Shown: positions 31,693 through 49,459 of the stretch, piece by piece
Position numbering within the stretch: the stretch's first letter is position 1
Layout: each line of letters begins with the position of its first letter
DNA from: Paenibacillus polygoni
Lineage (GTDB): Bacteria > Bacillota > Bacilli > Paenibacillales > Paenibacillaceae
Length of the DNA: 64,000 bases
Assembly: GCF_030263935.1 (NCBI RefSeq)
Contig: NZ_CP127162.1
Coordinates: 3,233,501-3,297,500, forward strand
Direction of reading: 5' to 3'
Notes under the pieces: generated by a model
What the model was told of the DNA's origin: nothing
The model's input: only the letters and a program-made list of their open reading frames with translations
Database searches by the model: none
Position numbers and translations under genes: made by a program

Positions 31693-31725
31693 TCTTAACC
31701 CCTCAATCCTCTATGATATAATTCA

Positions 31726-31756
31726 ATGATATTAGGTGACGTTACGTTACCTGCAA
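31726..31756 (-). promoter_or_regulatory. Candidate MerR operator and promoter of the CPBP gene
   Basis: AGGTGACGTTACGTTACCT (31734-31752) is a 19-base imperfect palindrome. On the minus strand it fills the spacer between TTGCAG (31751-31756) and TATCAT (31726-31731), giving a 19-base spacer, the unusual length that MerR activators need. Confidence 0.55.
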
Positions 31757-31781
31757 GCTTTTTTGAGGAGGAAATAGAAAC

Positions 31782-32540: not shown

Positions 32541-32712
32541 GACTACAGAACTTTGGGGTCATTCTGTGGGCACTAATGGCAATAGACATTTCTCCAAAAA
32601 AATCCCTTGACGCTTAGAGGCACCAAGGGTTTCAAGTTTTAGTACAGTGTCAAACATTGATCGCGTTCACATTGATGTACTTGCGTTCTGTGTATAACCC
32701 AAAACATCAAAG
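32541..32712 (-). repeat. glnA 3'-end copy 1 (attachment-site-like repeat)
   Basis: Minus strand 32639-32698 encodes HRTQVHQCERDQCLTLY-stop, close to the last 17 residues of glnA (48131), followed by a degenerate terminator (32595-32632). To its left is an integrase-tail-like segment (ACTTTGGGGTCATT). A G-rich repeat pair (GCAGGTGATT, GTAGGTGATT) lies at about 32797-32834. Reads as the most worn of the attachment-site copies. Confidence 0.75.
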
Positions 32713-32964
32713 GGCTTTTTAAATGTTATTCTATATACGTTTATTCGATATTGTGTTACTTCACCCTTCATAATCTTTTATAGTTCTCAGATTTTTGCAG
32801 GTGATTTTTTTAGTATATTGTAGGTGATTATAATTCAATAAATTTACTTTTGAATAAAAAGTATTTTATAGTGCTCCCTTTTATTCGAGATATCGAGTCT
32901 ATCTTCAACAATCTCCATTCTATGTACACTAACATTCTCTTTTATAATAAAACATCGTATTGGA

Positions 32965-33243
32965 AATAAGCACTACTAAAATAAAATTCTTCGTTTTGGC
33001 TTTAACGAACCCTGTGGTAATCTGGCTCTCACTTCTAATTCTAAACTTTTCCATGATTCGACTGTACATCCAACCTTCTTCTACTCGCAAACAGACAGCC
33101 TCTATCTTCTTTTCTTCACTATATCGAATAAAATTTCAACCTTTCTTTGCTGGCATAACAAAAATCCCCTTCGGTTCTCCAGTGTTTGAGTTCATTGTAA
33201 CATGTTCTCATTTTCCACTGTCTACCATGAGGGGATAATACCA
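32965..33243 (-). pseudogene. IS3-family OrfA remnant
   Basis: Minus strand translation begins MPAKKG-stop-NFIRYSEEKKIEAVCLRVEEGW, matching the helix-turn-helix start of the OrfA at 38384-38728 but with an internal stop and no further transposase. The outer end TTATCCCCTCATGGTAGACA resembles that element's terminus. A decayed insertion sequence. Confidence 0.75.
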
Positions 33244-33256
33244 TTAAGTCATTTTA

Positions 33257-34183
33257 TCATTTCATTTTTTCTTTGTATGCCTCAATAAGGAACACGATAT
33301 TCGTTGCACATAAATGTAAGGCATAAGCGACTAGGTATCTTGGAATTTTGACGCTTTTTTCACCTTGACCGTGTCCGGTATTCTGGTTCCTAATTGTTGC
33401 AAGTCCTTCTAACGTCGTCTTTAACGAATTGAGCTGAGTTTGAAGATTAGAAGGGATAAGTTCCTTTTCAAACAACCCAGAAATTAAAGGACTTGCTGTT
33501 TGTTTTGATGGCAAGTTCCATCCTTTTTTTATAAAAATAGTTTTCATGGTGCTTTCAAATGCCTTCAATGCTTCAGTCACAGATTCTTTATCATTACCCT
33601 TTTTGAAATGTTGGTGAGCCTTCATAAACTCCTCTGAAGCTCCTTCAAATCCTTCTCCAAAAAGTAGGTTGACAGCAGGTTCAACAGCCTCATGATAAAT
33701 ATATTCAGAATCTACACGAACTATATTCTGATTAATATACTGATAACCAAGGCCATGTTCCTGGAACCTTTTATTGAGTTCCTCAATTGCGTCCTCTGGA
33801 CTTTGAATTATTTCTTTATTTACCCAATTTCTGTGGTCATCCCTTACAACTATGTCTATCACTCTGAAAGATATTTCAATGATATCAAGAACTCTTTCAA
33901 CTGAGTCTTCGTCTAGTAGAAAATTAAAACAATAATCGCGTGAATTATGTCCTTTTGTACTTAAAGAAAAAACCCCGTACTCCTTACATAATACTTTGTG
34001 AATAAAATCCCAAGTTTCATTTGAAGCTTCATTTTGGTAATAAGCACCTTTTGCATATTTACCAATCGCGTCTCGTAAAATATGAATTATTTGTACCCTC
34101 AACGTGTGAGGTAGTTCGTCATGCTTAAATATAGCCTGTTGATTTTCTTTATTTCTTTTAGAGAAGATATTAAAAATCCCCAA
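33257..34183 (-). CDS. AbiJ-like / STM4504-CBY_0614 family protein
   Basis: 308 residues. N-terminus FNIFSKRNKE...LPHTLRVQIIHILRDA matches what I recall of the STM4504/CBY_0614 family with an AbiJ N-terminal domain (about residues 20-110), and the C-terminus (about 200-308, with KAFESTMKTIF and IRNQNTGHGQG) looks like the abortive-infection C-terminal domain. A phage-defence role is inference. The TTG start at 34183 lies only five bases from the IS at 34189, so the native ribosome binding site has been displaced. Reading without the IS restores an in-frame ATG at 35663. Confidence 0.75.
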   Translation of the reverse strand: MGIFNIFSKRNKENQQAIFKHDELPHTLRVQIIHILRDAIGKYAKGAYYQNEASNETWDFIHKVLCKEYGVFSLSTKGHNSRDYCFNFLLDEDSVERVLDIIEISFRVIDIVVRDDHRNWVNKEIIQSPEDAIEELNKRFQEHGLGYQYINQNIVRVDSEYIYHEAVEPAVNLLFGEGFEGASEEFMKAHQHFKKGNDKESVTEALKAFESTMKTIFIKKGWNLPSKQTASPLISGLFEKELIPSNLQTQLNSLKTTLEGLATIRNQNTGHGQGEKSVKIPRYLVAYALHLCATNIVFLIEAYKEKMK

Positions 34184-34282
34184 TGTTATAAACTGTACCC
34201 TACAGAGTAGACACTTTGAAAAAAGTCTATCCTGTGGGGTACTTTTGTTTATAATAAGAAAAAAACATCGGAGCGAATAAAG

Positions 34283-34711
34283 ATGACCAAACGATTATTT
34301 ACGGAAAAAGAACAAGCCCAACTAAAGCGTAATCCTCATGTCCGATCTGTTAGCAACAAAGCGATTACATATACAGATGAGTTTAAACGACTATTTATTA
34401 ATGAAAATAAGAAAGGAAAGTTACCCAGAACTATTTTTGAAGAAGCTGGCTTAGACGCTGAGCTAATCGGCATAAAACGCATCCATTCTGCTGGAAAGCG
34501 TTGGCGTGGAGCTTATCGTGAACATGGAGATGAAGGTCTACAGGATACAAGAAAAACAAACTCTGGTCGCCCCTTAGAGCGAGAATTAAGTTTAGAAGAA
34601 AAGGTTTTACGACTAGAAGCAAAAAATCGATTATTACAGGCTGAGAATGAACTTTTAAAAAAGCTCGATCTACTCGAAAGGCAGATGTTGAAGAAGAAAT
34701 TAAACTCGTAA
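34283..34711 (+). CDS. IS3-family transposase OrfA (copy A)
   Basis: 142 residues with a helix-turn-helix region and a C-terminal leucine zipper (EKVLRLEAKNRLLQAENELLKKL). The slippery A-AAA-AAG heptamer at 34657-34663 would allow -1 frameshifting into OrfB to make the active OrfAB transposase, as in other IS3 elements. Confidence 0.93.
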   Translation: MTKRLFTEKEQAQLKRNPHVRSVSNKAITYTDEFKRLFINENKKGKLPRTIFEEAGLDAELIGIKRIHSAGKRWRGAYREHGDEGLQDTRKTNSGRPLERELSLEEKVLRLEAKNRLLQAENELLKKLDLLERQMLKKKLNS

Positions 34712-34767
34712 CAAAACAGAAGTTTGAATTAATTCGTCAGACCATTGAAAAATATCAGCTAAATCGC

Positions 34768-35616
34768 TTGGTACACTATTTGTGTGAAACGATCGGTGTG
34801 TCTCGTTCTGGCTACTATAATTATTTCCACGAAAAATCAGTACGAAAGCGTACAGTACGCAATATAGCAGATGAAAAAGTAAGAGATATCATTTTAAAAG
34901 CCTATCATTTCCGTCGAAGAAAGAAAGGTGCTCGTCAAATTAAAATGACATTAAAAAATCAATATCATATCATTTACAACTTAAAACGAATTCGTCGCAT
35001 CATGAAGAAGTTCAATATATTTTGTCCGATCCGAAAAGCGAATCCTTATCGTCGGATGGCGAAAGCGACGCACGAACACCGTACATGTCCAAACCTCTTG
35101 CAGCGCCAGTTTAAACAAGGTGTAGCAGGCAAGGTATTATTAACGGACATCACTTACTTATCCTACGCTCACGGTAAACGTGCGTATTTGTCGACGATAA
35201 AAGATGCCGAAACGAATGAGATTTTAGCCTATGAAATATCTGATAAGATCACTCTAGATATTGCTTTAAATACGCTACGCCAATTAAAACGCAATCATTC
35301 GCACTTTGCGAAAGATGCATTTATTCATTCAGATCAAGGATTCCACTACACAAATCCCCAGTTTCAAAAGTTGGTAAAGAAAATGAAATTAGGACAATCT
35401 ATGTCACGCCGGGGAAACTGTTGGGATAATGCACCACAAGAATCTTTCTTTGGACATTTAAAAGATGAGATCGATTTAAAGACCTGTGAGACCTTACACG
35501 ATGTGAAACGTGAAGTGAGAAGTTATATGCTCTATTACAATCATTATCGTGGACAGTGGAACCTAAAGAAGATGCCGCCTGCAAAATACAGACAGCATCT
35601 CCTTCAAGTGGCTTAG
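34768..35616 (+). CDS. IS3-family transposase OrfB, DDE integrase domain (copy A)
   Basis: 282 residues in the track; the frame is open upstream to the slippery site at 34657-34663, so the fused protein would begin in OrfA. DDE residues: Asp in LLTDITYLS, Asp in IHSDQGFHY and Glu in APQESFFGH. TTG start listed, but natural expression is probably by frameshift. Confidence 0.93.
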   Translation: MVHYLCETIGVSRSGYYNYFHEKSVRKRTVRNIADEKVRDIILKAYHFRRRKKGARQIKMTLKNQYHIIYNLKRIRRIMKKFNIFCPIRKANPYRRMAKATHEHRTCPNLLQRQFKQGVAGKVLLTDITYLSYAHGKRAYLSTIKDAETNEILAYEISDKITLDIALNTLRQLKRNHSHFAKDAFIHSDQGFHYTNPQFQKLVKKMKLGQSMSRRGNCWDNAPQESFFGHLKDEIDLKTCETLHDVKREVRSYMLYYNHYRGQWNLKKMPPAKYRQHLLQVA

Positions 35617-35656
35617 CTTTTTTTAAAGTGTCCTTTACAAAGGGTACAGTTTATTA

Positions 35657-36167
35657 GTCTCATCACCTTTTTTTATGAAATTATACCACTCATTCATATT
35701 TTATAACCAGATATTAAATAACCCAACAAGCAACTAAACATTTCACTTATGTGGTGACTTTCTAGTAACAAATTTTTATATTTAATATTTCTCATTTCAC
35801 TGCTTCAATTACTAATTTTACGGAGATAGCAGTGTCAATACCTTTGAACTTCATTACGCTGCGGGAGCACCACTCGGGGACTTTCAAAATATCATTGTCT
35901 TTTAAATCTTTAAGCCATATCAACACTCCAACTCCATCCCGTACTTAGAATTCGGCTTATCTATTGGCTATTTTGGTATGTATGTTTCTCTTTCCCATCC
36001 CTCATAATTAAAATTCTTTCATGACTCTACTTCTCTTCCCATGCTATGTAATTATCATTTTCCATTTGTATTTGTTCTTATATCAATGACAAAAAAAGTG
36101 TAAAACTCAATAAGCTCACTAATAAAAAAACAGCAGTGACCTAGTGCAAATTAAAATATACTAGTTA
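35657..36167. other. Gene-poor stretch between IS copy A and the next gene
   Basis: 511 bases. The left part includes the displaced upstream region of the AbiJ-like gene: TATAAT-type -10 at 35680-35685 and AAAGGTG at about 35665-35671 on the minus strand. The rest is mostly a decayed copy of the winged-helix gene described in the next entry. Confidence 0.6.
35900..36085 (-). pseudogene. Decayed copy of the SOS-controlled winged-helix gene
   Basis: Minus strand fragments resemble the 3' end and upstream region of 43360-43638: encoded pieces such as GWERET and PNSKY, and shared TACTTAGAATTCGGCTT and GTTCTTATATCAAT blocks. Stops and frameshifts remove any coding capacity. Confidence 0.65.
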
Positions 36168-36863
36168 CTACTGGTTATTATCACTTGATCCGAACTTACT
36201 ACGAACAACTAGAAAACTGTTAAATGATTGTTTAAAATACCGAATTTTCGTTAACCATATAAAACCCAAATATCTCTTTTTGAGGCGCTCTTTGTACAAG
36301 TTCTTCTTTGTTCTTTTATAGCTATATTTAAATGTTTCAAAATTAGCTGTTGTATAGGTAATAACCAATTCAAGATTCGTCGAGAAGGTGGACTTGCTAC
36401 AATAAACTGTTTGTGGCAGATATAATGTGGTTTTGTGCTCCCACACCGGCATAATAAACATCTCATCAACTTTTTCACCCTCCTTACTACCATAGACAGT
36501 TCTGATTTTTACATTAATTACATTATTTTCAGTTACATTCTTCAAAACTAAAAATTGAAGAGGTGATCTAGTTCTTGCTCCTTTATAAAAATCTAAAGCT
36601 TCGTTCGTTATGTTTTTTCCGTTAGAACCTAGAAGTATTCTTCCATTACCATGATTCTCACTAACTTTATTCTCAAAAGGGTAATCAAATGTGTATTCTG
36701 CGTAATCAAGTATCACTCTTTTGGGTATATTCATTGCTTTCCGTTCTTTGAATGATGTAAACAATGAAGTAAGAATAAATGTAAGCACTGCCGTGATAAG
36801 TGGAACGACCACAGTCATATACTGAATAGTAGTGGGCACTGCATTTGTTGTAAGTGTATTCAA
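36168..36863 (-). CDS. Membrane-anchored orphan protein, element cargo
   Basis: 231 residues: one or two hydrophobic segments (about 17-40), then a cytoplasmic domain of beta-rich character (LQFLVLKNVTENNVINVKIRT). C-terminal 50 residues are strongly basic and aromatic. No family recognised. It occupies the slot between the winged-helix gene and the small conserved gene, the same slot held by the TPR protein at 43781-47302, suggesting variable cargo. Confidence 0.7.
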   Translation of the reverse strand: MNTLTTNAVPTTIQYMTVVVPLITAVLTFILTSLFTSFKERKAMNIPKRVILDYAEYTFDYPFENKVSENHGNGRILLGSNGKNITNEALDFYKGARTRSPLQFLVLKNVTENNVINVKIRTVYGSKEGEKVDEMFIMPVWEHKTTLYLPQTVYCSKSTFSTNLELVITYTTANFETFKYSYKRTKKNLYKERLKKRYLGFIWLTKIRYFKQSFNSFLVVRSKFGSSDNNQ

Positions 36864-36980
36864 ATAATTAACCTCGCTTTTTTATGATCTCATTAAGGAT
36901 GAGAGAGTCTGAAATGATATGTAATATATTCTGCTTTGATAAAATCAATATAACAGTATTAGATTATATTGTAAATTCGA

Positions 36981-37171
36981 GGGTGAAAAGCGAAGTTTGG
37001 ATTGAGAAAACCATGTTATAGGAAGCATATCAGCGCAAGAATAAGCATAAAAGTCAGCTAATACATAGCCTACAGCTGTAAATGCCAAAGGAGATGGGAT
37101 CAATCACTAACTCCATAACAAGATTTATAACAAGACTACATTGGATATATTTAAGCTGATAAAAAGGTATT
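36981..37171 (+). pseudogene. Decayed copy of a small conserved phage/element gene
   Basis: Plus strand AKFGLRKPCYRKHISARISIKVS then, after a frameshift, QLIHSLQL and MPKEMGSITNS. It is homologous to the copy at 47430-47612 (FGLRKPSYRKHISAKTSIKRQ). Frameshifts and stops make it non-functional. Confidence 0.7.
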
Positions 37172-37534
37172 CCGTTAAAGCTAATGAATTGAATTTATTT
37201 TTATGTAGAGATGGTGGCAGTTTTTTGCCGAAATCAACCTTGCCTCATGCATTTTCGAGAATATTTAATAAAGCTGAATTACCAAGTATACCTACCCATT
37301 GATTAAGGCATACTCACGCTTTATTACTTTTACAAACAGGTGTTGAGAAGAACGACTTGGCCATGGAAGTATCAGTATCACTTCAGATATCTATGCTTAC
37401 GTATCAAAGAAAAAAATAGAAAAAGACCCAACTGAAAAGTATGAGAAATACACAAACTTTGTGGGTGTTTCTGGGGTGACCCCCACAATTAACTTCCCCA
37501 TTGTCCTCTCCCCGAAAAAGAAAAACCCTTGGCG
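37172..37534 (+). pseudogene. Tyrosine integrase C-terminal remnant
   Basis: Plus strand encodes NELNLFLCRDGGSFLPKSTL...THxLRHTHALLLLQTGVE (the LRHTHA catalytic box) and, after frame changes, SDIYAYVSKKKIEKDP with the expected Tyr of the integrase (DIYAYVSKK type). Stops and frameshifts break it. The final codons run into the glnA-terminator copy at 37450-37539. It is the recombinase that would have used the glnA site. Confidence 0.82.
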
Positions 37535-37577
37535 CTAAGTGGTCAAGACCCCATTTTGTAGACATTGAAAAAAGACC

Positions 37578-38279
37578 CTAGGCGGTAAACTGGCGTCGGT
37601 ACTCTACCGGCGTCAGTTTTTTTAGTTTCCGTTGTGGCCGCCTTCGGTTATAAAAACGGATGTATTTCTCCATTCGCCTTTGTGCCTCTGCAAGATTTCG
37701 TATATCATAAGGGTAGAGTCCTTCCGTTTTGAGATGCGAGAAGAAACTCTCCATAGAGGCGTTGTCTAGGCAATTGCCTCGGCGAGACATGCTGATTTGG
37801 GCGCCAACCTTTGGCAGCATGTCGTGGTAAGCATGGGACGTGTACTGGAACCCTTGGTCGCTGTGAACGACTAGTCCGGTCACGTCTTTTTGCTTGGAAA
37901 AGGCTTTTGCGAACGTTTGAAGTACCAGCTCATTATCATTACGCTCACTAAGTTGGTAGGCTACAATCTCGTTATTAAATAGATCTTTCACTGCCGAGAG
38001 ATACAACCAGCGCTCGCCTACTCGGTATTGGGTCACATCCGTCACCCATTTCTGGTTTGGTTTTTCAGCCGTGAAATTACGCTTAAGCAGATTATCAGCA
38101 ACACGCTCGGCTGCCTGGTATGTCGCGTTAAATCGACGTTTCCGGCGAATACTGGCTTGAAGACCCATGTTTTGCATCAGGCGTAGTACCTTCTTGTGGT
38201 TCATCCATACACCTTCATCCTGCCACAAGAATAGCTGGATCTGTCGGTAGCCATATTTCCCTTCATAGCGTTTGTACAC
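37578..38279 (-). CDS. IS3-family transposase OrfB
   Basis: 233 residues listed; the frame extends upstream to the slippery site. DDE residues in WVTDVTQYR, VVHSDQGFQY and SMESFFSHL. Likely produced as an OrfAB fusion by a -1 shift at A-AAA-AAG (38462-38468). Confidence 0.92.
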   Translation of the reverse strand: MYKRYEGKYGYRQIQLFLWQDEGVWMNHKKVLRLMQNMGLQASIRRKRRFNATYQAAERVADNLLKRNFTAEKPNQKWVTDVTQYRVGERWLYLSAVKDLFNNEIVAYQLSERNDNELVLQTFAKAFSKQKDVTGLVVHSDQGFQYTSHAYHDMLPKVGAQISMSRRGNCLDNASMESFFSHLKTEGLYPYDIRNLAEAQRRMEKYIRFYNRRRPQRKLKKLTPVEYRRQFTA

Positions 38280-38383
38280 CGTACGGATGAGTTGTTTAGC
38301 CTCGGCATCTCGGTCGTTCTTCTTCCGCTTTACATATGCATAGTAGCCGCTTCTAGAGACACCAAGAAGTTGGCAATGTTCTG

Positions 38384-38728
38384 CTATTTGGCCGGTGGTC
38401 GCCGTTTGTTCGATGAGCCTGAAGCTTTGCTCTTTCCCTCCTGCATCCAGATTTTCAAATACTTTTTTAGTGTGGCATTCTCCCGTTTCAGCTGCTGGAC
38501 ATATCGCTCCTGATCTAAATACTCTTTTCGTCTTCCTCGTTGATCCAACAAACCAAACTCACCTTGTTCACGGTATTTACGCATCCAACGTTTCATTCGG
38601 CCCTGATCTTGAATTCCTAAATGATCGTTGATTTGCCGATACGTCCATTTTTCCTCTACGTGCAAACGGATTGCCTCCATCTTGAGTTCCTCAGAATATG
38701 TCTTAAACTTTTGACCTTTCATTGCCAT
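38384..38728 (-). CDS. IS3-family transposase OrfA
   Basis: 114 residues: helix-turn-helix (YSEELKMEAIRLHVEEKWTYRQIN) and a coiled coil. The frameshift heptamer A-AAA-AAG lies at 38462-38468 on the minus strand. Related to the remnant at 32965-33243. Confidence 0.92.
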   Translation of the reverse strand: MAMKGQKFKTYSEELKMEAIRLHVEEKWTYRQINDHLGIQDQGRMKRWMRKYREQGEFGLLDQRGRRKEYLDQERYVQQLKRENATLKKYLKIWMQEGKSKASGSSNKRRPPAK

Positions 38729-38967
38729 AAAAAATACACCCCCTAGAATTTCATCGGTTAACCCAGGGGTTTTTCCAATGTCTATTCTAAGGGGTGCACT
38801 TCACTAAGAGCGCCAAGGGTTACATATTCTAGTACAGCGTCAAATATTGATCGAGTTCCCATTGATGTACTTGAGTTCTATGTATAACCCAAGACATCAA
38901 TGGAATTTTTTCTCTGTCATTATATCTGTATTTATTTGCACAGTAACATTTTACCTCTCAAATCTTT

Positions 38968-39465
38968 TTATAGTATTTCAGTTTTTTGTGGGTGATTTTG
39001 GGGTGAATTTGTGGGTGATTCTAAATTTGTTTGATCTACTTTCTTTTTAATCTTACCATAGTGTAATAGTGAAGCGCATAAGCTAAGAAGAGAAAGTCCG
39101 CTTAATATATGTGCAGATAAAAATATATCTGTTTTTCCGTGAAGTGCTTCAATAAATTCTTGCAATTGAAATGGAAATATTTTAACAAAAAATGCTAAAA
39201 CAAAGGCAAAAATTGCCGTTAAATACAAAATTCCTTTAACCAAATATAGTAGAATTCGGTTTTTTCCCTGAATAGTGAATCCAGTGTATACAGTAGCAAT
39301 AATAGTCGCTATTCCACCAAATCTATTAATAAAAGATTCCCACTGCATTAAGCCAGAATTTCCTCCGGTCAATGTTAATTCTATCCCATACCAAACTACA
39401 ATTATCGCAAAAATAAATAATAACCAAAGAAACAAATTTATGAATTTCGCCTGATTAGTTCCCAT
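38968..39465 (-). CDS. Orphan membrane protein, element cargo
   Basis: About 165 residues from ATG 39465 preceded by AAGGTGG; the frame is also open from 39504. Roughly four membrane segments. The C-terminal tail (ESPTNSPQNHPQ) is translated from the G-rich repeat region near glnA copy 2, so its end may be a fusion into the repeat. No family recognised. Confidence 0.65.
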   Translation of the reverse strand: MGTNQAKFINLFLWLLFIFAIIVVWYGIELTLTGGNSGLMQWESFINRFGGIATIIATVYTGFTIQGKNRILLYLVKGILYLTAIFAFVLAFFVKIFPFQLQEFIEALHGKTDIFLSAHILSGLSLLSLCASLLHYGKIKKKVDQTNLESPTNSPQNHPQKTEIL

Positions 39466-39583
39466 AAAATCCACCTTTAAGTGAGATAAATGCACACTAT
39501 ACACTTAATTGTTCTTTCGAACCGGAATAATTCCTAATGTGTAATCATAATAACTATTTGTTTTTCAGCTGATTAGGCAATTC

Positions 39584-39970: not shown

Positions 39971-40973
39971 ATCCTACTGAATAAATTATTTATACAAGAA
40001 CCTTATTTGTTGTAAAAAGCACCACGATATACGGGTAAATCTCTCCTCTTATCAGACTATTCATAGAAGTATAATATCAATTTCCACAGTTCCAAAAATA
40101 TAAACGGTCAAGTCATTTCTTTTCTTTCTTCCATTCTCCATTTATAAAAAACCTATTTATTACTATGTTTGCCGCATAACCTAAAATAATCAGATCAATA
40201 ATTTTAGCAGTAGTCATATGAAAGAATTGTACAATTTTTAAATGACTCTCTTGCATAACAGCCGAAGCCATATCACTGTAAAATCCAATGCTTGGAGCAG
40301 GGAGAGAAACATGCAAGCAAAACGAATAAAAAAAGGACTGCGTAAAAATGTTTATGGTACTAACAAAATTTTCTTCAATAAACTCTAATCTAAACTGTAC
40401 AGCTTGATCGCTTGTGGAAAAGAAAAGATACGCAATAGAAAAAGTAACATCAGCAATAAGAAATGCAAGTAATATTACAACAAAATAAAAATTTGGTTGC
40501 GATTTTTTATATTTGAGATATTATTGCGCAAATAAAAAATGTAAATATACTTACCAACCGTATATCAGAGTCATTTATCAAATCAACAATTACAGAATCT
40601 TGTTTTGTAGTGAGTCGAGATACTAAATTAGCAGTTACAAACCACGCTAAAAAGACTGTAAATATCCATCCTACATATTTTATAGAAAGAGAAAGCATTC
40701 TGAAAAAAAAGTTCAAATCTGCTATTTGTTCAAATTCTTCAACTGACTCTAATTCAGGCCAACCATATTTAAAAATAATAAGTAAGCAATTTATAAGCAA
40801 AACAATTGCAAAAACAAACCACCAAATATCTATATATAAGGGTGCGGTAATAAGAATTAAAAAAAAGACTATATGAATCTAAACTGTACCCTACAGAGTA
40901 GACACTTTGAAAAAAGTCTATCCTGTGGGGTACTTTTGTTTATAATAAGAAAAAAACATCGGAGCGAATAAAG

Positions 40974-41402
40974 ATGACCAAACGATTATTTACGGAAAAA
41001 GAACAAGCCCAACTAAAGCGTAATCCTCATGTCCGATCTGTTAGCAACAAAGCGATTACATATACAGATGAGTTTAAACGACTATTTATTAATGAAAATA
41101 AGAAAGGAAAGTTACCCAGAACTATTTTTGAAGAAGCTGGCTTAGACGCTGAGCTAATCGGCATAAAACGCATCCATTCTGCTGGAAAGCGTTGGCGTGG
41201 AGCTTATCGTGAACATGGAGATGAAGGTCTACAGGATACAAGAAAAACAAACTCTGGTCGCCCCTTAGAGCGAGAATTAAGTTTAGAAGAAAAGGTTTTA
41301 CGACTAGAAGCAAAAAATCGATTATTACAGGCTGAGAATGAACTTTTAAAAAAGCTCGATCTACTCGAAAGGCAGATGTTGAAGAAGAAATTAAACTCGT
41401 AA
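40974..41402 (+). CDS. IS3-family transposase OrfA (copy B)
   Basis: Protein identical to the copy A OrfA, including the leucine-zipper C-terminus and the A-AAA-AAG slippery site before its stop. Confidence 0.93.
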   Translation: MTKRLFTEKEQAQLKRNPHVRSVSNKAITYTDEFKRLFINENKKGKLPRTIFEEAGLDAELIGIKRIHSAGKRWRGAYREHGDEGLQDTRKTNSGRPLERELSLEEKVLRLEAKNRLLQAENELLKKLDLLERQMLKKKLNS

Positions 41403-41458
41403 CAAAACAGAAGTTTGAATTAATTCGTCAGACCATTGAAAAATATCAGCTAAATCGC

Positions 41459-42307
41459 TTGGTACACTATTTGTGTGAAACGATCGGTGTGTCTCGTTCT
41501 GGCTACTATAATTATTTCCACGAAAAATCAGTACGAAAGCGTACAGTACGCAATATAGCAGATGAAAAAGTAAGAGATATCATTTTAAAAGCCTATCATT
41601 TCCGTCGAAGAAAGAAAGGTGCTCGTCAAATTAAAATGACATTAAAAAATCAATATCATATCATTTACAACTTAAAACGAATTCGTCGCATCATGAAGAA
41701 GTTCAATATATTTTGTCCGATCCGAAAAGCGAATCCTTATCGTCGGATGGCGAAAGCGACGCACGAACACCGTACATGTCCAAACCTCTTGCAGCGCCAG
41801 TTTAAACAAGGTGTAGCAGGCAAGGTATTATTAACGGACATCACTTACTTATCCTACGCTCACGGTAAACGTGCGTATTTGTCGACGATAAAAGATGCCG
41901 AAACGAATGAGATTTTAGCCTATGAAATATCTGATAAGATCACTCTAGATATTGCTTTAAATACGCTACGCCAATTAAAACGCAATCATTCGCACTTTGC
42001 GAAAGATGCATTTATTCATTCAGATCAAGGATTCCACTACACAAATCCCCAGTTTCAAAAGTTGGTAAAGAAAATGAAATTAGGACAATCTATGTCACGC
42101 CGGGGAAACTGTTGGGATAATGCACCACAAGAATCTTTCTTTGGACATTTAAAAGATGAGATCGATTTAAAGACCTGTGAGACCTTACACGATGTGAAAC
42201 GTGAAGTGAGAAGTTATATGCTCTATTACAATCATTATCGTGGACAGTGGAACCTAAAGAAGATGCCGCCTGCAAAATACAGACAGCATCTCCTTCAAGT
42301 GGCTTAG
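41459..42307 (+). CDS. IS3-family transposase OrfB (copy B)
   Basis: Protein identical to copy A OrfB, with an intact DDE triad; expected to be made by frameshift from OrfA. Confidence 0.93.
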   Translation: MVHYLCETIGVSRSGYYNYFHEKSVRKRTVRNIADEKVRDIILKAYHFRRRKKGARQIKMTLKNQYHIIYNLKRIRRIMKKFNIFCPIRKANPYRRMAKATHEHRTCPNLLQRQFKQGVAGKVLLTDITYLSYAHGKRAYLSTIKDAETNEILAYEISDKITLDIALNTLRQLKRNHSHFAKDAFIHSDQGFHYTNPQFQKLVKKMKLGQSMSRRGNCWDNAPQESFFGHLKDEIDLKTCETLHDVKREVRSYMLYYNHYRGQWNLKKMPPAKYRQHLLQVA

Positions 42308-42646
42308 CTTTTTTTAAAGTGTCCTTTACAAAGGGTACAGTTTAATCCACTTTTGTCTTAAAGTTCTATTTTTTAAAGTATGAATGTATACTGCATAGTT
42401 AACAAGAAAAGCATAAATAATAACTAGTTTTCCTATCGAAGATTCCTCAAAGAAAAATAAAAGCAGTGATAAAATCAACGAAAAATAGAAACCATTCGTT
42501 ATAATATCAATTATTTTAGAAAGTTTATCTTTAAATATCTGATAAAATGAAAAAGTTACCACTCGCCTTACTCTTACTCTGTATAACTTTTTTCCTTCTT
42601 TTGTTATTCCAATGAAAACTTTGTGCTCAGACATAAGTATCCTCAT

Positions 42647-43016
42647 ATAAAATATTGTGTATGTTATATTTTTAGTTTAGTGTAGATAAAAAGTTTAAAA
42701 CCCAGTATTCAAATTATCAATAAGTTCATTTTAACATAATTATAAAAATCATATCAGTCATATTAACTCTAAATCAAGTCAACTTCTCTAAAATGATTAG
42801 CTACTTCATAGTTTGTAAACCCACTTAAAGCTTTCACGCTAAATTCTTATTATAAAGTTCTTTGAACTTGTGTTCTATTTATAACCCTCTACATCATAAC
42901 GATTCAAGTCGTTTTAACGTATATTATAGGAAGAGATTTTTCTTAAAGATCACACTTTGTTCTGTATCGGGGGCAAATGGGGGGCGTTTTGGGGGCGCCT
43001 CCCTCAACTAATTATC
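42647..43016. other. Gene-free stretch with a possible fourth glnA-end trace
   Basis: 370 bases without a gene. At 42861-42900, CTTGTGTTCTATTTATAACCC followed by ACATCAT resembles the glnA tail region of the other copies (CTTGTGTTCTATACATATCC in glnA). At about 42969-42997 lies GGGGGCAAATGGGGGGCG, like the G-rich repeats next to copies 1 and 2. Too degenerate to be sure. Confidence 0.4.
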
Positions 43017-43357
43017 TTACAGACGTGCAGCGATAATATCAGTAATCTTTATCCATTCCCATTCATCCGCTGCAATAGATAATTTGATATCTCGGGTATA
43101 CCTATTAATAGTAGTTACAATTCCTGTTATGTGCCTGTCTTCATTGGTATCAAACAGAGCTAGATCCACTTTACAATGCTGATTAAATGATTCAAGCAGA
43201 GCACCTTCAATTAATTGCATTTCTTGATCATCAAGAACAGGTTTACGGCGTTCGCAGTACTTTAACTGATCTTGTCTTTGAATCCAAGCCTCTTTATGCT
43301 CCGGGAGTACAATTCGAGAACCTTCGAATATTCCGTAACCTGTAGTTTCTTAGCCAT
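43017..43357 (-). pseudogene. YolD-like gene, frameshifted near its start
   Basis: YolD-like proteins accompany Y-family polymerase UvrX in SOS-induced operons. From ATG 43357 the frame reads MAKKLQ and then shifts; a one-base loss near 43338-43340 would restore GYGIFEGSRIVLPEHKEAW, the family signature, ending at ATKIIAARL-type tail (TDIIAARL). The intact 67 residues from 43220 are the remainder. No polymerase gene follows. It begins 2 bases after the winged-helix gene. Confidence 0.75.
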
Positions 43358-43359
43358 AT

Positions 43360-43638: not shown

Positions 43639-43654
43639 TGTCATCACTCCCACA

Positions 43655-43693
43655 AGAACATATGTTTGTGTATTATTCCCAAACATACGTTCT
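43655..43693 (-). promoter_or_regulatory. Two LexA-type boxes upstream of the winged-helix/YolD genes
   Basis: AGAACATATGTTTG (43655-43668) and CAAACATACGTTCT (43680-43693), both GAAC-N4-GTTY form. A TTGATA-17-GAATAA promoter-like pair overlaps them on the minus strand. Suggests SOS control of the element. Confidence 0.72.
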
Positions 43694-43736
43694 TATATCA
43701 ATAACAAATAAAGGCAACAGTTTGTTTAGGATAAAT

Positions 43737-43775
43737 AAAAAAAAGCGTAAAGGCGATTTCCATTTTACGCTTTTT
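43737..43775 (-). terminator. Intrinsic terminator of the TPR gene
   Basis: Minus strand AAAGCGTAAA and TTTACGCTTT, 10-bp stem followed by eight T; may act on both strands. Confidence 0.85.
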
Positions 43776-43780
43776 CTAAA

Positions 43781-46700
43781 TCATATGATTGACTGAGACT
43801 GAAGCCACTGTTCAATATTATGTCTCATTCTTTCCCATTGATGAAGTACTAATATAGAAAACTTTGATTTGCTATGCTGTATCAATTTTTGTATTGAATC
43901 GTATTTAGTTTTGTTAGTCGTTAGAATAGAGCATAGATAATCGGTAATTGGTTCTCTTTTGTGCTTACAACTTTCTTCTGTCCATATCCAAAAGAGAATA
44001 TCCGATAACACATCGATTACGAACTCTGTGTTAAATTCTTTAATTTCCAGATAATCGAAAACCAAAGCAGTTTCATTATCTATATTATAATTATTCTTCG
44101 ATAGATAATGAATAAATACATCACTTTTGACTGGGATCAATGTATAACCCATTATCATTAAATCACCTAATAGCTCGCACTGTCTTGCTTTATCAATTTT
44201 CCCTTTATCGAGTAGAGCAAATATAAAATCGATGATTGTAAAACAATCAACTTTATAATTATCTCTAGCGTGCTTGACGACAAGGAAGCTATCGGTCAGC
44301 ATACGTAAATTATTTTGTTTACTGATTTTAATTGGATTATTTATAAATCCGATTTCATCCTTTCTAACTTCTGGGTCGTTGGTTATAGCATCCCCGACTA
44401 AGTTGCAATTTTCTTTAATCCACTTGATCATATCCTCATGGCGTTTTACTACATATTCTACTTCTAATGAAGAAAACTCTTCGACTAAAATTTTCCCGTC
44501 TTTAAATCCCATCGTTTTAAGGCCTTCATCACTAACTAATTTAATGTCGTTATATTCCTGGAGGGCTAACATAAATTGATCATAATGAACAAACAAATTA
44601 AAGTTTTCTTTTATTATCTCCAGTAGATTTAGATTATTTAGTGCGAATAGAACTGTTATATCACACAAAACATCCTTAGATTCTGTAGCCAGATTTCTAC
44701 CCAGATCTAAATCAATAAACATGCCAGATGAAGCCCAGATGTGTAGACCTCTCTCATTTATAACATTAGACCACGTCCTAAACGGTCCTCTCTGTAATTG
44801 ATTTACGAGAACACTTATAGGCAGTCTATTATTCTCATACATGTTCATGGTTTGTAAATGAGACTGCGATAAAAGTTTCAGTTCTTCAATAAAACTCTCT
44901 GAAATATTATCGTCCTCTATTATATCAAACTTTTTGAATAACGGAGCTGCATCGGGAAATTGTATTTCGAATTGTTCAAACATCATTTGGTACTCGCTCA
45001 GCCATTTATTATCTGGATCTTTTACAAATTGCAGTAGTTGAGACATTTGACCAAAATAGAAATGCCACGTCTCCGGTTCTTCTTTTCCCGCTATAAATGC
45101 ATGATATGCATGTTCCATAGATTTTCGGTGCTCTAGTGCATTCATGTATGCGATACTCAGTAAATAAAAATCCTCTTTCTTACCACTCCTCATTACCCTA
45201 GTTTCAACAGTACCTAGAACCTCTAACGCTTCTTCAGTTTCACCTAAGCGTAATAAGCAATTTGCATATCCTAGATGATAGCCTAAAGCATCTGTCTGTC
45301 TGTAAAGTGATAGATAATTTTTTTTGGCAGTATCATACCATCCTAAATTAAAGTATATATTTGTAATTATCTCAAGGAAGTAAGAGTTTATGTGGGATAG
45401 CCGAGTACTTAATGTGATGATTTTTTCATAGGATTCTATCTCGTATAATGCTTTCACATATCGATTAATTAAAAACTCAAATTCCATCCAATTTGGTATA
45501 GACTCTATGAGATTAATTAATTTCACATAATCTTCTCTCTCACATCTATTTAAGTAAGCTAGGGTCAATTGAACTTTTGCATCAATTAATTCATTACCTT
45601 CTAAAACTTCAACACAAGATTCAAAATGATCAATTGCTTTGGACCAATTGTGTAGTTTCCCCTCATAATACCCTTTTACCATGTTTAAATGTGAGGTATC
45701 AGATGTCGTATTTTCGAGGGTAATAATCAAAGTTCTAACGTCATTGTGTTTCAAATCAAGCAATAAGGCATCAATATACGTAATAAAATACTCATAATCT
45801 AATTTTTCTTCAGTTAGAAATAAGTTTCTTTTATCCTGGACTAAATCTGTAGCTTTTTCGGTTTCACCAATCTCAATATAAGATCTTGCTAAATCAATAA
45901 TATAAGCCTTATTAGTGCTTCCACTATCTAATACTTCAGTAAGAAGTTCTATGACTCTAATCCAATCTGCATTACACATACAGACCGCAATTAAATTTTT
46001 TAAGTGCAGTTCATTCATTGAGACGCGGTAAATATCCTCATACAATACTCTTGCTTCTGAGAAACGTTTATTCCTGAATAATAATGCAGCTTGCAATTCT
46101 TTTACTCTATTTGTGATTAGTATATTCTCTATATCTCTCTTTAAAATTTCATTTAGTAATGACATTACATTATCTAGTACAAATTTAGGGTCAAGTTTTT
46201 CATGCTCTAAATTGCTTTCTTCCATTTTTAATATCATGGATTCCGCTTTAATTATTGACCAATCAATACTACTGGGTTCTTCTACTAAATGTTTCTCAGC
46301 AAGTCTGATTGCTTCATCGTAATTTTGAGTTCTTTGTAATACATTCGCTTTAAGCTTTACTAAACTAACTTCTTGATGTTCATCTATTATGCGCAAAGCT
46401 TCATCATATTCCTTTTGCATAAGGTGTATATTGATTAGGAGTTCTAAGTTTTTTTTAGTATTACCCTCTACCTCTATCGCTTCATTGATTTTCTTTAGTG
46501 CATCATCAAAACGCTCCTCAAAAAGCTCAATTAACGCTGTTAATCTATTTTTTAATGCATTATCATCACAATTACCAACAGCTGTATATAAATGTGGGAT
46601 TGCTTCCTTTTCATTGCCACTAATTATATATGAGTTAGCTATCAGGGAATGCAACCCTAAGATATCTTGACGATTTAGTCTTTGTCGGCTAAGTCTCTCT

Positions 46701-47302
46701 TTGGCTAATTCACGAGCAGTACTTGTTTTCCCTTGATTAATAAGTTCGTTTAAATCATCAACATTAGTTGGGGTAGTAAATTCCTTAAATATACTTTCTG
46801 TTAGCTGAATTGTCTGATTTTGTTTTTCTTCTATTCTTTCTAAGCCGTTTTCAACTTTTTGTTCCAAACGTTCAATACCATACAATATCTCCAAAAATTC
46901 TGGGTCCCAATGTATTTTCTTGTATTCTGCAGTCTCAGCTAAGATAGATTCGAAAAAAGGAACTAATCTATCTTGATACCTTGGATACGATTCCCAATAA
47001 GGCTCGAGATTTAATCTATGTTTATCAAAATCTTTAAGTGACACTCCTTCTAGTATCCAGCGAAAGACTTCGTCTCTATTTGTCTTATCTTCCAATAACT
47101 CACGAACCAATATATCAGGCAAGTCAAAAATCTCTTTTGCATCTAATACTGCAGCTTCAAATAACAATGTAGTTTTAGACGCGTAGTTATCTGCCTGCCA
47201 TTTCGCTTTAATATCACGAATCGACTTTGAATTTTTTATTCTAGGCCACATAAAAGCAAAAAAACTATTACCTACACTTTTTAAAAAAGAAGCAAGTTCC
47301 AT
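43781..47302 (-). CDS. Large TPR protein with PIN-like C-terminal domain
   Basis: 1173 residues, intact. Residues about 190-760 are TPR-like repeats (for example LLINIHLMQKEYDEALRIIDE). The C-terminal third (about 900-1100) resembles a PIN nuclease domain of TPR-PIN proteins: KDVLCDITVLFALNNLNLLEII, then MLTDSFLVVKHARDN and LGDLMIMGYTLIPV. A first half of coiled and helical sequence precedes. Similar TPR-PIN proteins have been noted in conflict systems; a defence role is inference. RBS GAAGGGTG precedes the ATG. Located in the cargo slot of the element. Confidence 0.75.
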   Translation of the reverse strand: MELASFLKSVGNSFFAFMWPRIKNSKSIRDIKAKWQADNYASKTTLLFEAAVLDAKEIFDLPDILVRELLEDKTNRDEVFRWILEGVSLKDFDKHRLNLEPYWESYPRYQDRLVPFFESILAETAEYKKIHWDPEFLEILYGIERLEQKVENGLERIEEKQNQTIQLTESIFKEFTTPTNVDDLNELINQGKTSTARELAKERLSRQRLNRQDILGLHSLIANSYIISGNEKEAIPHLYTAVGNCDDNALKNRLTALIELFEERFDDALKKINEAIEVEGNTKKNLELLINIHLMQKEYDEALRIIDEHQEVSLVKLKANVLQRTQNYDEAIRLAEKHLVEEPSSIDWSIIKAESMILKMEESNLEHEKLDPKFVLDNVMSLLNEILKRDIENILITNRVKELQAALLFRNKRFSEARVLYEDIYRVSMNELHLKNLIAVCMCNADWIRVIELLTEVLDSGSTNKAYIIDLARSYIEIGETEKATDLVQDKRNLFLTEEKLDYEYFITYIDALLLDLKHNDVRTLIITLENTTSDTSHLNMVKGYYEGKLHNWSKAIDHFESCVEVLEGNELIDAKVQLTLAYLNRCEREDYVKLINLIESIPNWMEFEFLINRYVKALYEIESYEKIITLSTRLSHINSYFLEIITNIYFNLGWYDTAKKNYLSLYRQTDALGYHLGYANCLLRLGETEEALEVLGTVETRVMRSGKKEDFYLLSIAYMNALEHRKSMEHAYHAFIAGKEEPETWHFYFGQMSQLLQFVKDPDNKWLSEYQMMFEQFEIQFPDAAPLFKKFDIIEDDNISESFIEELKLLSQSHLQTMNMYENNRLPISVLVNQLQRGPFRTWSNVINERGLHIWASSGMFIDLDLGRNLATESKDVLCDITVLFALNNLNLLEIIKENFNLFVHYDQFMLALQEYNDIKLVSDEGLKTMGFKDGKILVEEFSSLEVEYVVKRHEDMIKWIKENCNLVGDAITNDPEVRKDEIGFINNPIKISKQNNLRMLTDSFLVVKHARDNYKVDCFTIIDFIFALLDKGKIDKARQCELLGDLMIMGYTLIPVKSDVFIHYLSKNNYNIDNETALVFDYLEIKEFNTEFVIDVLSDILFWIWTEESCKHKREPITDYLCSILTTNKTKYDSIQKLIQHSKSKFSILVLHQWERMRHNIEQWLQSQSII

Positions 47303-47429
47303 TGTTTCACCCTTCGATAGTATATTTTGTTTATAATTTCAAGGGAATTGAGCTAGTAATTTAGTATAGATATGACCTTGGAAAATATATATATCTTGAT
47401 TCACAATATTTGTAAATTAGAGGTGTGGA

Positions 47430-47612
47430 GTGAAGTTTGGATTGAGGAAACCAAGTTACAGGAAACATATAAGTGCAAAAACAAGCATTAAAAGACAACT
47501 TATACATAGCTTAGGGCTGAAAATGCCAAAAGGGACGGGATGAATTACTAATTCCAAGAAAGCAGCCTATAACCAGATTTACAGTAAGACAACATTGATA
47601 TATTCAAGATAA
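47430..47612 (+). pseudogene. Small conserved phage/element gene with one internal stop
   Basis: GTG start with GAGGTGTGGA upstream; 60 codons reading MKFGLRKPSYRKHIS...LGLKMPKGTG-stop-ITNSKKAAYNQIYSKTT. A single TGA (probably from Trp) breaks it. Families of this size are common in Firmicute prophages and mobile elements. A decayed duplicate is at 36981-37171. Confidence 0.72.
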
Positions 47613-47652
47613 TTAGAAAGAGAAATAAAGCCACTTCCATTAGACAGGGCTT

Positions 47653-48020
47653 TCAGACTGTAGACAAACAAACTTAAACTAGTTTGTCTACAGTCTGATT
47701 TATTTTACGATAGAATTAACTTTTCATATGAGGTGATAATCATTCTACAGAAACAATCATCCACTCAGCATGACCAACTCGAAATGGTTTCTCTTGATCA
47801 ACTTGTGTCAGAAAATAATTTGGTTCAGGATCATTATTCGAAAATTGGACGGCCTAGCATCGATCCGATCATCTTAATTAACTCCCCCTGTTCAATACAC
47901 CTTTGGTATTCTTCTATGCGAAAAACTATTGAAGAAATACAGACCTAAATGACGTATCGTTGGTTATTTGGCTATGGATTTTATGATGAAGTTCCTTATT
48001 TCTTCACTTTTGGAAAGAAA
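47653..48020 (+). pseudogene. IS1182-like transposase fragment with end hairpin
   Basis: A perfect 17-bp hairpin (47653-47669 with 47682-47698) followed by MIIILQKQSS...YSKIGRPSIDPIILI and, after a stop, RWLFGYGFYDEVPYFFTFGKK. This matches the N-terminal part of IS1182-type transposases with an internal deletion. It replaces the integrase expected next to this glnA copy. Confidence 0.75.
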
Positions 48021-48084
48021 CATATACTTTGTGGGTATTTCTAGGGTAACTATCCACAATCAACTTCCCCGTTGTATTCTCTCA

Positions 48085-48123
48085 GAAAAAGAAAAACCCT
48101 CAACGCTAAGAGCGCCAAGGGTT
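48085..48123 (-). terminator. glnA terminator (also attachment core region)
   Basis: Minus strand AACCCTTGGCGCT-CTT-AGCGTTGAGGGTT, 13-bp stem (three G-U), followed by TTTC and five T. The same block recurs in copies 1 and 2. Confidence 0.9.
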
Positions 48124-48130
48124 ACAAGTT

Positions 48131-49459
48131 CTAGTACAGCGTCAAATATTGATCGCGTTCCCATTGATGTACTTGTGTTCTATACATATCCCACTCGATT
48201 TCTTTCAATTCATAGAAATGAGCAAGTGCGTGCTCGCCTAGTGCGTCCGTAACTACTTCACTGCGGATCAATTCATGCAGTGCTTCTTTCAGGTCAGCTG
48301 GCAAGGAAGGAATGCCTTCTTCAATACGCTCTTCTTCTGACATGATGTAGATATTACGGTCAATCGGAGCTGGTAATGCTAGTTCACGTTTGATACCGTC
48401 AAGACCAGCTTTCAGCATTACAGCAAGTGCAAGGTAAGGGTTTGCTGCTGGATCCGGGTTACGAACCTCAACACGAGTACTTAGACCGCGTGATGCTGGA
48501 ATACGGATCATCGGGCTGCGGTTACTTGCTGACCATGCTACGTAACAAGGTGCTTCATATCCCGGAACCAAACGTTTGTAAGAGTTCACCGTTGGATTCG
48601 TGATCGCTGCCATTGCGCGAGCATGTTTCAGAATACCTGCCATATAATGGCGAGCTTCTTTACTCAGACCAAGTTCATCAGACTCATCATAGAATGTATT
48701 TACATTACCTTTAAATAAGGACTGGTGGCAGTGCATCCCTGATCCGTTCATACCAAATAGAGGTTTTGGCATAAAGGTTGCATGCAGACCATGCTGACGA
48801 GCAATCGTTTTTACTACGAGTTTAAAAGTTTGAATCTCATCCGCAGCTTTGACAGCTTCTTCATATTTGAAGTCGATCTCATGTTGTCCTGGAGCCACTT
48901 CATGGTGAGAAGCTTCCACTTCAAAGCCCATCTCTTCCAAAGTAAGTACGATCTCACGACGGCAGTTTTCACCAAGATCCATTGGAGCAAGGTCAAAATA
49001 ACCACCTTGGTCATTGAGTTCTGTTGTCGGATTACCGTTCGCATCCGTACGGAATAAGAAGAATTCAGGTTCAGGTCCCACGTTCATGGAAGTGTAGCCC
49101 ATTTCTTCCGCTTCTTTAAGTACACGTTTTAAAATACCGCGCGGGTCTCCTGCAAATGGAGTACCATCTGGCATATATACATCACAGATAAGACGTGCAA
49201 CACGGTTCTCAGCAACCCAAGGGAATACAACCCAAGTGTCTAGATCCGGGTACAAGTACATATCCGATTCTTCAATACGAACATAACCTTCAATGGAAGA
49301 TCCATCAAACATCATTTTATTATCCAATGCTTTTTGTAACTGGCTTACTGGAATTTCAACGTTCTTGATCGTACCGAGCAGATCAGTAAATTGCAAACGG
49401 ATAAAGCGTACATTTTCTTCTTTTGCAATACGAATAATGTCCTCTTTAGTATAACTCAC
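48131..49459 (-). CDS. glnA: Glutamine synthetase, type I
   Basis: ATP-dependent amidation of glutamate to glutamine. 442 residues, normal for Firmicute GS. Motifs: [77 protein letters not shown]. The C-terminus [12 protein letters not shown] is the source of the duplicated copies to the left. GAGAGG upstream. Preceded by glnR in the conserved glnRA order. Confidence 0.97.

What the first reader, a model, noticed from the sequence alone, without database searches (positions are those of the whole stretch)
32541..48200. Repeated glnA 3' ends mark a decayed integration hot spot between lexA and glnA
Sequence shows the last ~17 glnA codons plus terminator at 48131 repeated at 38829-38888 ([17 protein letters not shown]) and 32639-32698 (HRTQVHQCERDQCLTLY), all in one orientation. 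An integrase remnant (37172-37534) ends inside copy 2. In related genomes lexA and glnA are near neighbours, so the ~15.5 kb between them is an insertion. The simplest reading is repeated integration by tyrosine-recombinase elements at the glnA 3' end, with the target restored each time. The use of glnA as an attachment gene is not one I can name from the literature.
Basis: partly seen in the sequence, partly recalled or inferred. Interest (0 to 1): 0.75.

Follow-up and report, generated by a model that had tools for sequence, protein, structure and literature searches.

The report
Stacked mobile elements at glnA's end
The stretch between lexA and glnA in this Paenibacillus genome is a decayed stack of mobile DNA elements that inserted one after another at the end of the glutamine synthetase gene, each restoring the gene, and relatives of their integrase use the same landing site in many related bacteria.

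Summary
Observation confirmed; interpretation supported and extended. Copies of the glnA 3' end (last ~17 codons plus terminator) lie in one orientation at 32.6, 38.8 and 48.1 kb. They are junctions of two tandem, decayed integrated elements: E1 (32.7-37.5 kb, ruined tyrosine recombinase) and E2 (38.9-48.1 kb); weaker traces suggest two more. One near relative (G018) has the empty site; another (G005) carries only E1, 98-100% identical although the DNA to its left is 81-88%. Open integrase genes of this family end 70-121 bp from glnA in six other Paenibacillus genomes. Of the best 80 integrase loci from public genomes, 77 have the GlnA tail just downstream; phage SPbetaL5 carries such a tail as apparent attP. 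Of 75 same-genus genomes, at least 27 hold extra tails. attL/attR pairs point to a 7-bp crossover over Tyr-Arg-Thr codons, with mostly synonymous variation. Elements share this core but differ in short arm repeats, whose type matches at both ends in 10 of 10 arrays over 40 kb (20 of 25 overall). glnA-adjacent prophages are in print for Macrococcus and, tentatively, Staphylococcus aureus; my searches found none for Paenibacillus or Bacillus. No activity was tested.

The parts
48131..49459 (-). glnA (glutamine synthetase, 442 aa), the attachment gene; 7-bp crossover candidate GTTCTAT at 48177-48183
   Evidence: ORF; 59 of 59 relatives matched; overlap from attL/attR pairs
48095..48130 (.). glnA terminator-like hairpin, on the element side of the crossover
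   Evidence: sequence
32597..32698 (-). glnA 3'-end copy 1 (attL of E1), tail HRTQVHQCERDQCLTLY plus terminator
38804..38888 (-). glnA 3'-end copy 2 (E1/E2 junction); its outer terminator half lies at 37515-37539 beyond the insertion IS-B
42863..42887 (-). partial fourth att (core plus P' side only) of a further element
   Evidence: 0 expected by chance for the four matches
42969..42999 (+). GGGGGC-type arm repeats of the partial fourth att
   Evidence: read
32552..32574 (+). GTGGGCA-type P arm of a possible earlier element (E0), integrase not seen
   Evidence: only match in 64 kb; 6 and 7 of 100 shuffles had one too; resembles the P arm of G318
32798..32829 (+). E1 P' arm repeats (GTGGGTGATT type, decayed)
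33257..34183 (-). E1 cargo: AbiJ_NTD4/DUF7014 protein, abortive-infection-like
   Evidence: Pfam; PADLOC candidate family PDC-S32, E 1.7e-12
34189..35653 (+). IS-A copy 1 (transposase with rve, HTH_21), 1465 bp identical to copy 2; 3-bp repeat TTA; absent from the same place in G005
36168..36863 (-). E1 ORF, 231 aa, no Pfam or PADLOC hit
37186..37454 (+). E1 integrase C-terminal remnant (frameshift, internal stop)
37460..37489 (+). E1 P arm repeats (GTGGGTG type)
37540..38803 (-). IS-B (IS3-like by its ORFs, recalled, no family scan) in the loop of copy 2's terminator; repeats CTAAG at 37535-37539 and 38804-38808
38988..39020 (+). E2 P' arm repeats (GTGGGTG type)
40880..42344 (+). IS-A copy 2
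43017..43220 (-). YolD-like gene in the E2 region
43781..47302 (-). E2 region cargo: 1173-aa TPR protein with a PIN-TPR-GreABC domain
   Evidence: no PADLOC hit
47422..48059 (+). E2 integrase-end remnant: a repeat shared with E1, a fragment repeated elsewhere in the genome (47900-48019), and the P arm at 48030-48059
30991..32525 (.). Two genes (30991-31692, CPBP-like by recall; 31782-32525, MerR) absent from the empty site in G018: possible E0 cargo (uncertain)
   Evidence: MerR by Pfam

Best explanation
The lexA-glnA interval is an accretion array of integrative elements that use the 3' end of glnA as attB. Each element's tyrosine recombinase sits at the element end next to glnA. Its attP carries the last 16 or so codons of glnA plus a terminator, so integration swaps the gene's end for an equivalent one, keeps GlnA intact, and leaves the old end as attL at the far side. 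Repeating this stacks elements in tandem, with a copy of the glnA end at each junction. In the window E1 and E2 are both decayed (E1's integrase is cut short and frameshifted; E2's is gone, with a repeated sequence in its place), and traces of perhaps two more elements remain. Shown by sequence: the repeats, empty sites, open integrase genes in relatives, tandem elements, attL/attR/attP structure. Inferred: that strand exchange occurs in the 7 bp over the Tyr-Arg-Thr codons, that the 11-bp-spaced repeats bind the integrase's N-terminal arm domain, and that the elements could excise.
For: Repeats. Empty site in G018 and E1-only state in G005. Identity to G005 is 81-88% through 30.8-32.5 kb, then 98-100% through E1. 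Integrase homology with a GlnA tail within 700 nt in 17 of 36 loci examined (L051-L086); six have open frames of 382-406 aa ending 70-121 bp from glnA, a seventh has 309 aa. Tail within 700 nt of the integrase in 77 of the best 80 public-genome loci; shuffled maximum score 34 against a threshold of 45. In a class-wide search with a more distant integrase, 12 of the 30 loci returned. At least 27 of 75 genus genomes have extra tails; in all 25 with both on one contig they lie downstream of glnA in the same orientation (my count). attL and attR are identical in the 7 bp in 15 of 27 pairs (shuffled mean 3.8), or 14 of 22 after dropping truncated and split-contig pairs (3.5); arm types match in 20 of 25 (8.3) and 10 of 10 at 40 kb or more (4.6). 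SPbetaL5 carries a matching attP-like site.
Against: No integration or excision was observed. E2's integrase is reduced to its end region. L129 (Thalassobacillus) carries a related integrase without a glnA tail. 8 of 22 attL/attR pairs differ in the 7 bp, and 5 of 25 arm pairs differ, all five in arrays of 9 kb or less, which I read as composites. Of two further pairs seen but not in that count, L055 shows no arm repeat at its far end and L056 shows a different type. The shuffles ignore the relatedness of hosts and elements. E1's shared block begins about 70 bp outside copy 1, so E1 may have spread by ordinary homologous recombination rather than by its integrase.
Confidence: 0.92

Rival explanations
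1. The copies of the glnA end arose by local duplication (slippage or unequal recombination) and the intervening DNA filled in later.
For: The copies are direct repeats in one orientation next to the parent gene.
Against: Empty and one-element states exist in near relatives; integrases abut the tails in many genera; attL copies continue into an element flank whose arm repeats mostly match the other end.
Confidence: 0.02
2. The elements first entered by site-specific integration, but the present array was mainly reshaped and spread as passive DNA by homologous recombination between strains, with glnA tails and neighbouring genes as homology. This is compatible with the best explanation for first entry and differs only on later spread.
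For: E1 in G005 also lacks an open integrase and is 98-100% identical while the DNA to its left is 81-88%; the high-identity block starts near 32525, outside the tail.
Against: Does not explain first entry; mobilisation by a related integrase might look similar; on the glnA side identity is 90-98%, so no sharp step was shown there.
Confidence: 0.45
3. The insertion was assembled by IS elements (composite transposition).
For: Two identical 1465-bp IS copies and another IS-like insertion lie inside.
Against: They lie inside E1, E2 and copy 2, not at the outer borders; IS-A is absent from E1 in G005, so at that site it is not part of E1's origin.
Confidence: 0.01

Closest known systems
Prophages integrated downstream of glnA in Macrococcus psychrotolerans (PMC12016501, passages read), and a phage site between glnA and its neighbour in S. 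aureus from macaques (PMC9570271, passages read; identification called not safe there)
   Same: Same attachment gene and same side of the gene
   Different: In the passages I read there is no attachment sequence, no link to a Bacillales-wide integrase clade and no tandem decayed array
Accretion arrays and CIMEs (cis-mobilisable elements) of ICE biology (recalled)
   Same: Elements without a working integrase, flanked by att sites, stacked in tandem at one target
   Different: Known cases use other genes (recalled); the one relative whose genes I scanned here looks phage-like
Integrative elements in 3' ends of protein genes such as guaA, icd, prfC, fda (recalled)
   Same: Gene end restored by the element
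   Different: glnA target; in this genus the apparent overlap varies only at synonymous positions of Tyr-Arg-Thr codons
Core-genome transfer hotspot next to glnA in S. aureus, attributed to ICE6013 (PMC4036114, section 8 read)
   Same: glnA named the hottest core gene beside a variable mobile-element region with vestigial phage genes
   Different: No site-specific use of glnA is proposed in that section
Lambda and HK022 integrases (recalled)
   Same: Tyrosine integrases with separate arm and core binding
   Different: As recalled, that pair shares arm sites and differs in core; here the core is shared and the arm repeats differ

Membership tests
Tyrosine-recombinase integrative element in a gene 3' end | Tyrosine recombinase at one element end | tested here: met
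   Remnant in E1; intact relatives with Arm-DNA-bind_4, SAM_3 and Phage_integrase domains (3 proteins). E2 keeps only the end region.
Tyrosine-recombinase integrative element in a gene 3' end | Direct repeats holding the gene's end at both borders | tested here: met
Tyrosine-recombinase integrative element in a gene 3' end | Empty site in relatives | tested here: met
   G018; 95-279 bp lexA-glnA gaps in 5 of 40 stretches
Tyrosine-recombinase integrative element in a gene 3' end | Excision and integration activity | not testable with these tools
   needs bench work
Accretion array / CIME | Tandem elements sharing a junction att | tested here: met
   copy 2 as E1/E2 junction; tandem cases in P. 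ottowii and PAMC 26794
Accretion array / CIME | Element flanked by att sites but without a working integrase | tested here: met
   E1 and E2: no open integrase frame, remnant only
Accretion array / CIME | Mobilisation by a related element | not testable with these tools
   E1 sharing with G005 is compatible with it but also with homologous recombination
Prophage | Phage structural genes in E1 or E2 | tested here: inconclusive
   None among 8 element ORFs scanned with Pfam; E1/E2 not scanned with PHROGs. In relative L151, 4 of 5 proteins hit phage replication or ParB families; structural genes were not looked for.
Conjugative element (ICE) | Relaxase and conjugation genes | not tested
   no dedicated search

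The most novel reading that the evidence does not exclude
A Bacillales-wide integrase clade shares one core site, the last codons of glnA, with a 7-bp overlap that varies mostly at synonymous positions, while its arm-binding repeats have diversified into some ten or more types, so that elements stacked at one gene can be recognised and excised separately. Repeated replacement of the gene's end would also homogenise its last codons and could help drive the recombination hotspot seen at glnA in S. aureus.
Probability: 0.4. Interest if true: 0.7.

Novelty: new member of a known kind. Interest (0 to 1): 0.55.

Why it matters
glnA encodes a central enzyme of nitrogen assimilation, and in the literature I could search it appears only piecemeal as a phage site. 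Here it is a preferred landing gene for a large integrase clade found in Paenibacillus, Bacillus, Brevibacillus, Domibacillus, Oceanobacillus and others, with stacked elements and cargo that looks defence-related in this window. It offers a natural set of integrases with one core site and many arm types, useful for asking how tandem elements avoid mis-excision, and a concrete test for why glnA is a recombination hotspot in S. aureus.

Tried and rejected
Local duplication and IS-driven assembly were considered and rejected (see rivals). The seven extra genome matches that cover query 1-120 are not att copies: they match 47900-48019 only. I tested whether the last codons are hypervariable at synonymous sites, an idea from one pair (L051/L052). 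Over all 595 genus pairs codons 426-431 are not clearly so (0.446 against a window mean of 0.390, 72nd percentile), though high in two identity bins (92nd and 97th percentile). Codons 432-442 are low over all pairs (0.242, 1st percentile), but not among the closest pairs (72nd percentile). I expected glnA targeting to be one clade; the careful tree of 94 integrases needs 6 label changes, 4 of them forced. Two rows labelled 'other' inside the main group are weak negatives (L110 has glnA 1.5 kb away; L101 has 825 bp of flank and a tail only on its far side). Reading the site at 42863 as the left end of the glnA-adjacent element was dropped because arm types disagree (GGGGGC against GTGGGT); its origin is unresolved.

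Literature: 10 searches. Of the 29 papers listed I opened 5: passages and one section; 24 were seen as listing only. Passages were also read in PMC8270828 (its table of SPbeta integration loci was only partly visible), PMC8955182, PMC12884075, PMC12424338 and PMC7891712. The 2020 NAR survey of protein-gene targets by Mageeney and colleagues (recalled) is not held, so I cannot say whether glnA is in it.
Full report
What is in the window. glnA runs on the minus strand at 48131-49459. Its 3' end with the terminator is repeated at 38810-38910 and 32620-32720. A 29-nt tail probe allowing 3 mismatches finds only these three places in 64 kb and none in 100 shuffles. A probe for the core plus the element side of the junction finds a fourth, partial site at 42863-42887. 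The copies are attachment-site junctions: on the lexA side each carries tail and terminator, and on the glnA side copies 1 and 2 run into a related flank with short repeats.

Integrase remnants. The C-terminal hundred or so residues of an integrase can be recognised at 37186-37454, in two frames with one stop (PF00589 E=5.8e-4, under the cut-off). Beside glnA, repeats D5-D7 match the surroundings of that remnant, but the integrase itself is gone. A fragment in its place, 47900-48019, has six more matches in the genome at 84% and one at 81%. IS-A occurs twice, identical over 1465 bp; at the first site G005 has the empty place and the repeat is TTA. IS-B sits in the loop of copy 2's terminator with a 5-bp repeat. 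I call IS-B IS3-like from its ORFs, by recall; only IS-A's transposase was scanned.

Relatives. The window lies in a 4.94-Mb genome. Its same-genus group includes contigs recognisable by length (G002 = Paenibacillus sp. PAMC 26794, G015 = P. ottowii MS2379, G029 = P. barcinonensis), so I take the genus to be Paenibacillus. Of 40 fetched glnA stretches, lexA was found in 27. The gap was 95-279 bp in five (four outside the genus) and 711 bp in G018. G018 shows the empty site and G005 shows E1 alone. Against G005 the window is 81-88% identical from 30.8 to 32.5 kb, 98-100% through E1, and 90-98% on the glnA side; the step lies near 32525. E1 has thus been shared between strains more recently than the DNA to its left, by its own site, with help from a related integrase, or by homologous recombination; since the step lies about 70 bp outside the tail, the last has some support. 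A GTGGGCA-type arm at 32552-32574, just there and the only match in the window (6 and 7 of 100 shuffles also had one), suggests that another element once lay to the left.

The integrase clade. An alignment of five intact integrases was used to scan one genome for each of 84,980 species; 186 loci encoded relatives and the best 80 were kept. tblastn of GlnA finds at least its tail in 78 of the 80, in L101 only on the far side. By the stricter test (within 700 nt downstream, score at least 45; shuffled maximum 34 over 216 loci) it is 77 of 80; the exceptions are L101, L110 (glnA 1.5 kb away) and L129. These are the best relatives, so the rate holds for the clade, not for integrases at large. In a search of 250 genomes of the class with the more distant L063 integrase, 68 had a match and 30 loci were returned, best first. 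Twelve of the 30 are next to the glnA tail; two of the twelve (G016, G025) repeat loci already in the first set, and two of the eighteen others have under 250 bp of flank. The twelve include two that group with a Staphylococcus epidermidis phage integrase; the DNA around one matches Staphylococcus phages, though over about 170 bp only. Of 80 viral-contig loci 14 have the tail, among them all 10 with at least 250 bp of flank. The quick tree of 94 rows groups 64 glnA-linked integrases with two weak negatives, SH-aLRT 97; the careful tree needs 6 changes of the glnA label against 23.6 in shuffles, so one origin is not shown.

attP. Among 50,697 phage records a 44-aa GlnA tail query matched 12. 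Six unannotated Listeria or Enterococcus records match over all 44 residues, which looks like host DNA; five more are weak (E 0.03-4) and were not opened. SPbetaL5 carries only the tail, the last 19 residues as in Bacillus GlnA, then unrelated DNA, beside an integrase 53% identical to L069.

Tandem arrays elsewhere. In 75 genomes of the genus, the window's own included, 72 matched the 62-nt tail probe. Twenty-five have two or more matches, and in two more (G014, G004) the one match is an extra copy, giving 27 (my count; two of these, G306 and G307, rest on 28-nt matches). This is a lower bound: one search had shown further tails in L055 and L057 (G033, G032). In all 25 of the 27 with both on one contig the extra copy is downstream of glnA in the same orientation, 1.9 to 113 kb away. 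P. ottowii has three tails exactly 59,740 bp apart, and the 11,356 bp compared at the two integrase ends are identical: tandem identical prophages, or an assembly artefact. PAMC 26794 stacks elements with integrases 36% (at glnA) and 59% (at the extra tail) identical to the query.

Crossover and arms. In G014 and G312 the attL and attR tails differ at 5 and 3 of the 14 nt left of the core but share GTTCTGT and then diverge again. That leaves 7 bp, reading GTNCNRT on this strand: two bases of a Tyr codon, an Arg codon and two bases of a Thr codon. Among the genus pairs that are neither truncated nor decayed the variants are synonymous; elsewhere they are not always so (Phe in Bacillus-type tails, Lys in L095 and L099). 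Fifteen of 27 pairs are identical in these 7 bp (shuffled mean 3.8); after dropping three truncated (G004, G306, G307) and two split-contig pairs (G029, G328), 14 of 22 (3.5). G270 counts as different at 7 places only because of a 1-bp insertion; aligned, it differs at one. Beside each tail stand short repeats: by a simple rule 71 of 87 integrase loci show one, 64 of them with 11-bp spacing, 16 show none (my count). The types, sorted by eye, include GTGGGT, GTGGGC, GGGGGC, GGGGGA, GCGGTC, GTGGTC, TCGGGC, TTGGGC, GTGGGA and GGGGTG. Of 28 end pairs 3 lack an arm at one end; in the other 25 the types match in 20 (shuffled mean 8.3), in 10 of 10 at 40 kb or more (4.6), in 8 of 13 below that (4.2), and in both split-contig pairs. 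Relatedness is not removed by these shuffles, and G306 and G307 are near copies. Three integrases scanned carry an Arm-DNA-bind_4 domain, which I infer binds these repeats.

Cargo. E1 carries an AbiJ_NTD4/DUF7014 protein (PADLOC candidate family PDC-S32, E 1.7e-12); the E2 region carries a 1173-aa TPR protein with a PIN-TPR-GreABC domain and a YolD-like gene. GC is 0.346 (E1) and 0.331 (E2) against 0.401 for the window. One relative scanned, L151, looks phage-like: 4 of 5 proteins hit phage replication or ParB families and one a phage family of unknown function.

Known or new. Prophages downstream of glnA are in print for Macrococcus psychrotolerans (PMC12016501); for S. aureus a phage site beside glnA is listed, its content not safely identified (PMC9570271). 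PMC4036114 names glnA the hottest core gene beside a variable mobile region in S. aureus. In ten searches of the held library, with most hits seen as listing only, I found nothing on Paenibacillus or Bacillus, on the attachment sequence, or on the clade; a key survey is not held. I therefore file the window as a new member of a known kind and keep the shared-core, many-arms reading as the novel case.

Noticed in passing
L066 (G034) 8268-9595: glnA matches in two pieces that meet near codon 197, a frameshift or an assembly error.
   Followed up: no
G015:C21 81322, 141062, 200802: Three glnA tails exactly 59,740 bp apart and 100% identity over the 11,356 bp compared: tandem identical prophages or an assembly artefact.
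   Followed up: partly
glnA codons 432-442: Synonymous diversity in the last 11 codons is low over all genus pairs (1st percentile of windows) though not among the closest pairs; homogenisation by elements or constraint from DNA binding could explain it.
   Followed up: partly
L147 11302-12603: In Priestia abyssalis the integrase lies beside a divergent GlnA (55% identical), so a paralogue may also serve as target.
   Followed up: no
window 43781-47302: 1173-aa TPR protein with a PIN-TPR-GreABC domain, a possible defence gene without a PADLOC hit.
   Followed up: no
window 42863-42999: Partial att with GGGGGC-type arms inside E2, whose own arms are GTGGGT-type; how it came there is unexplained.
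   Followed up: partly
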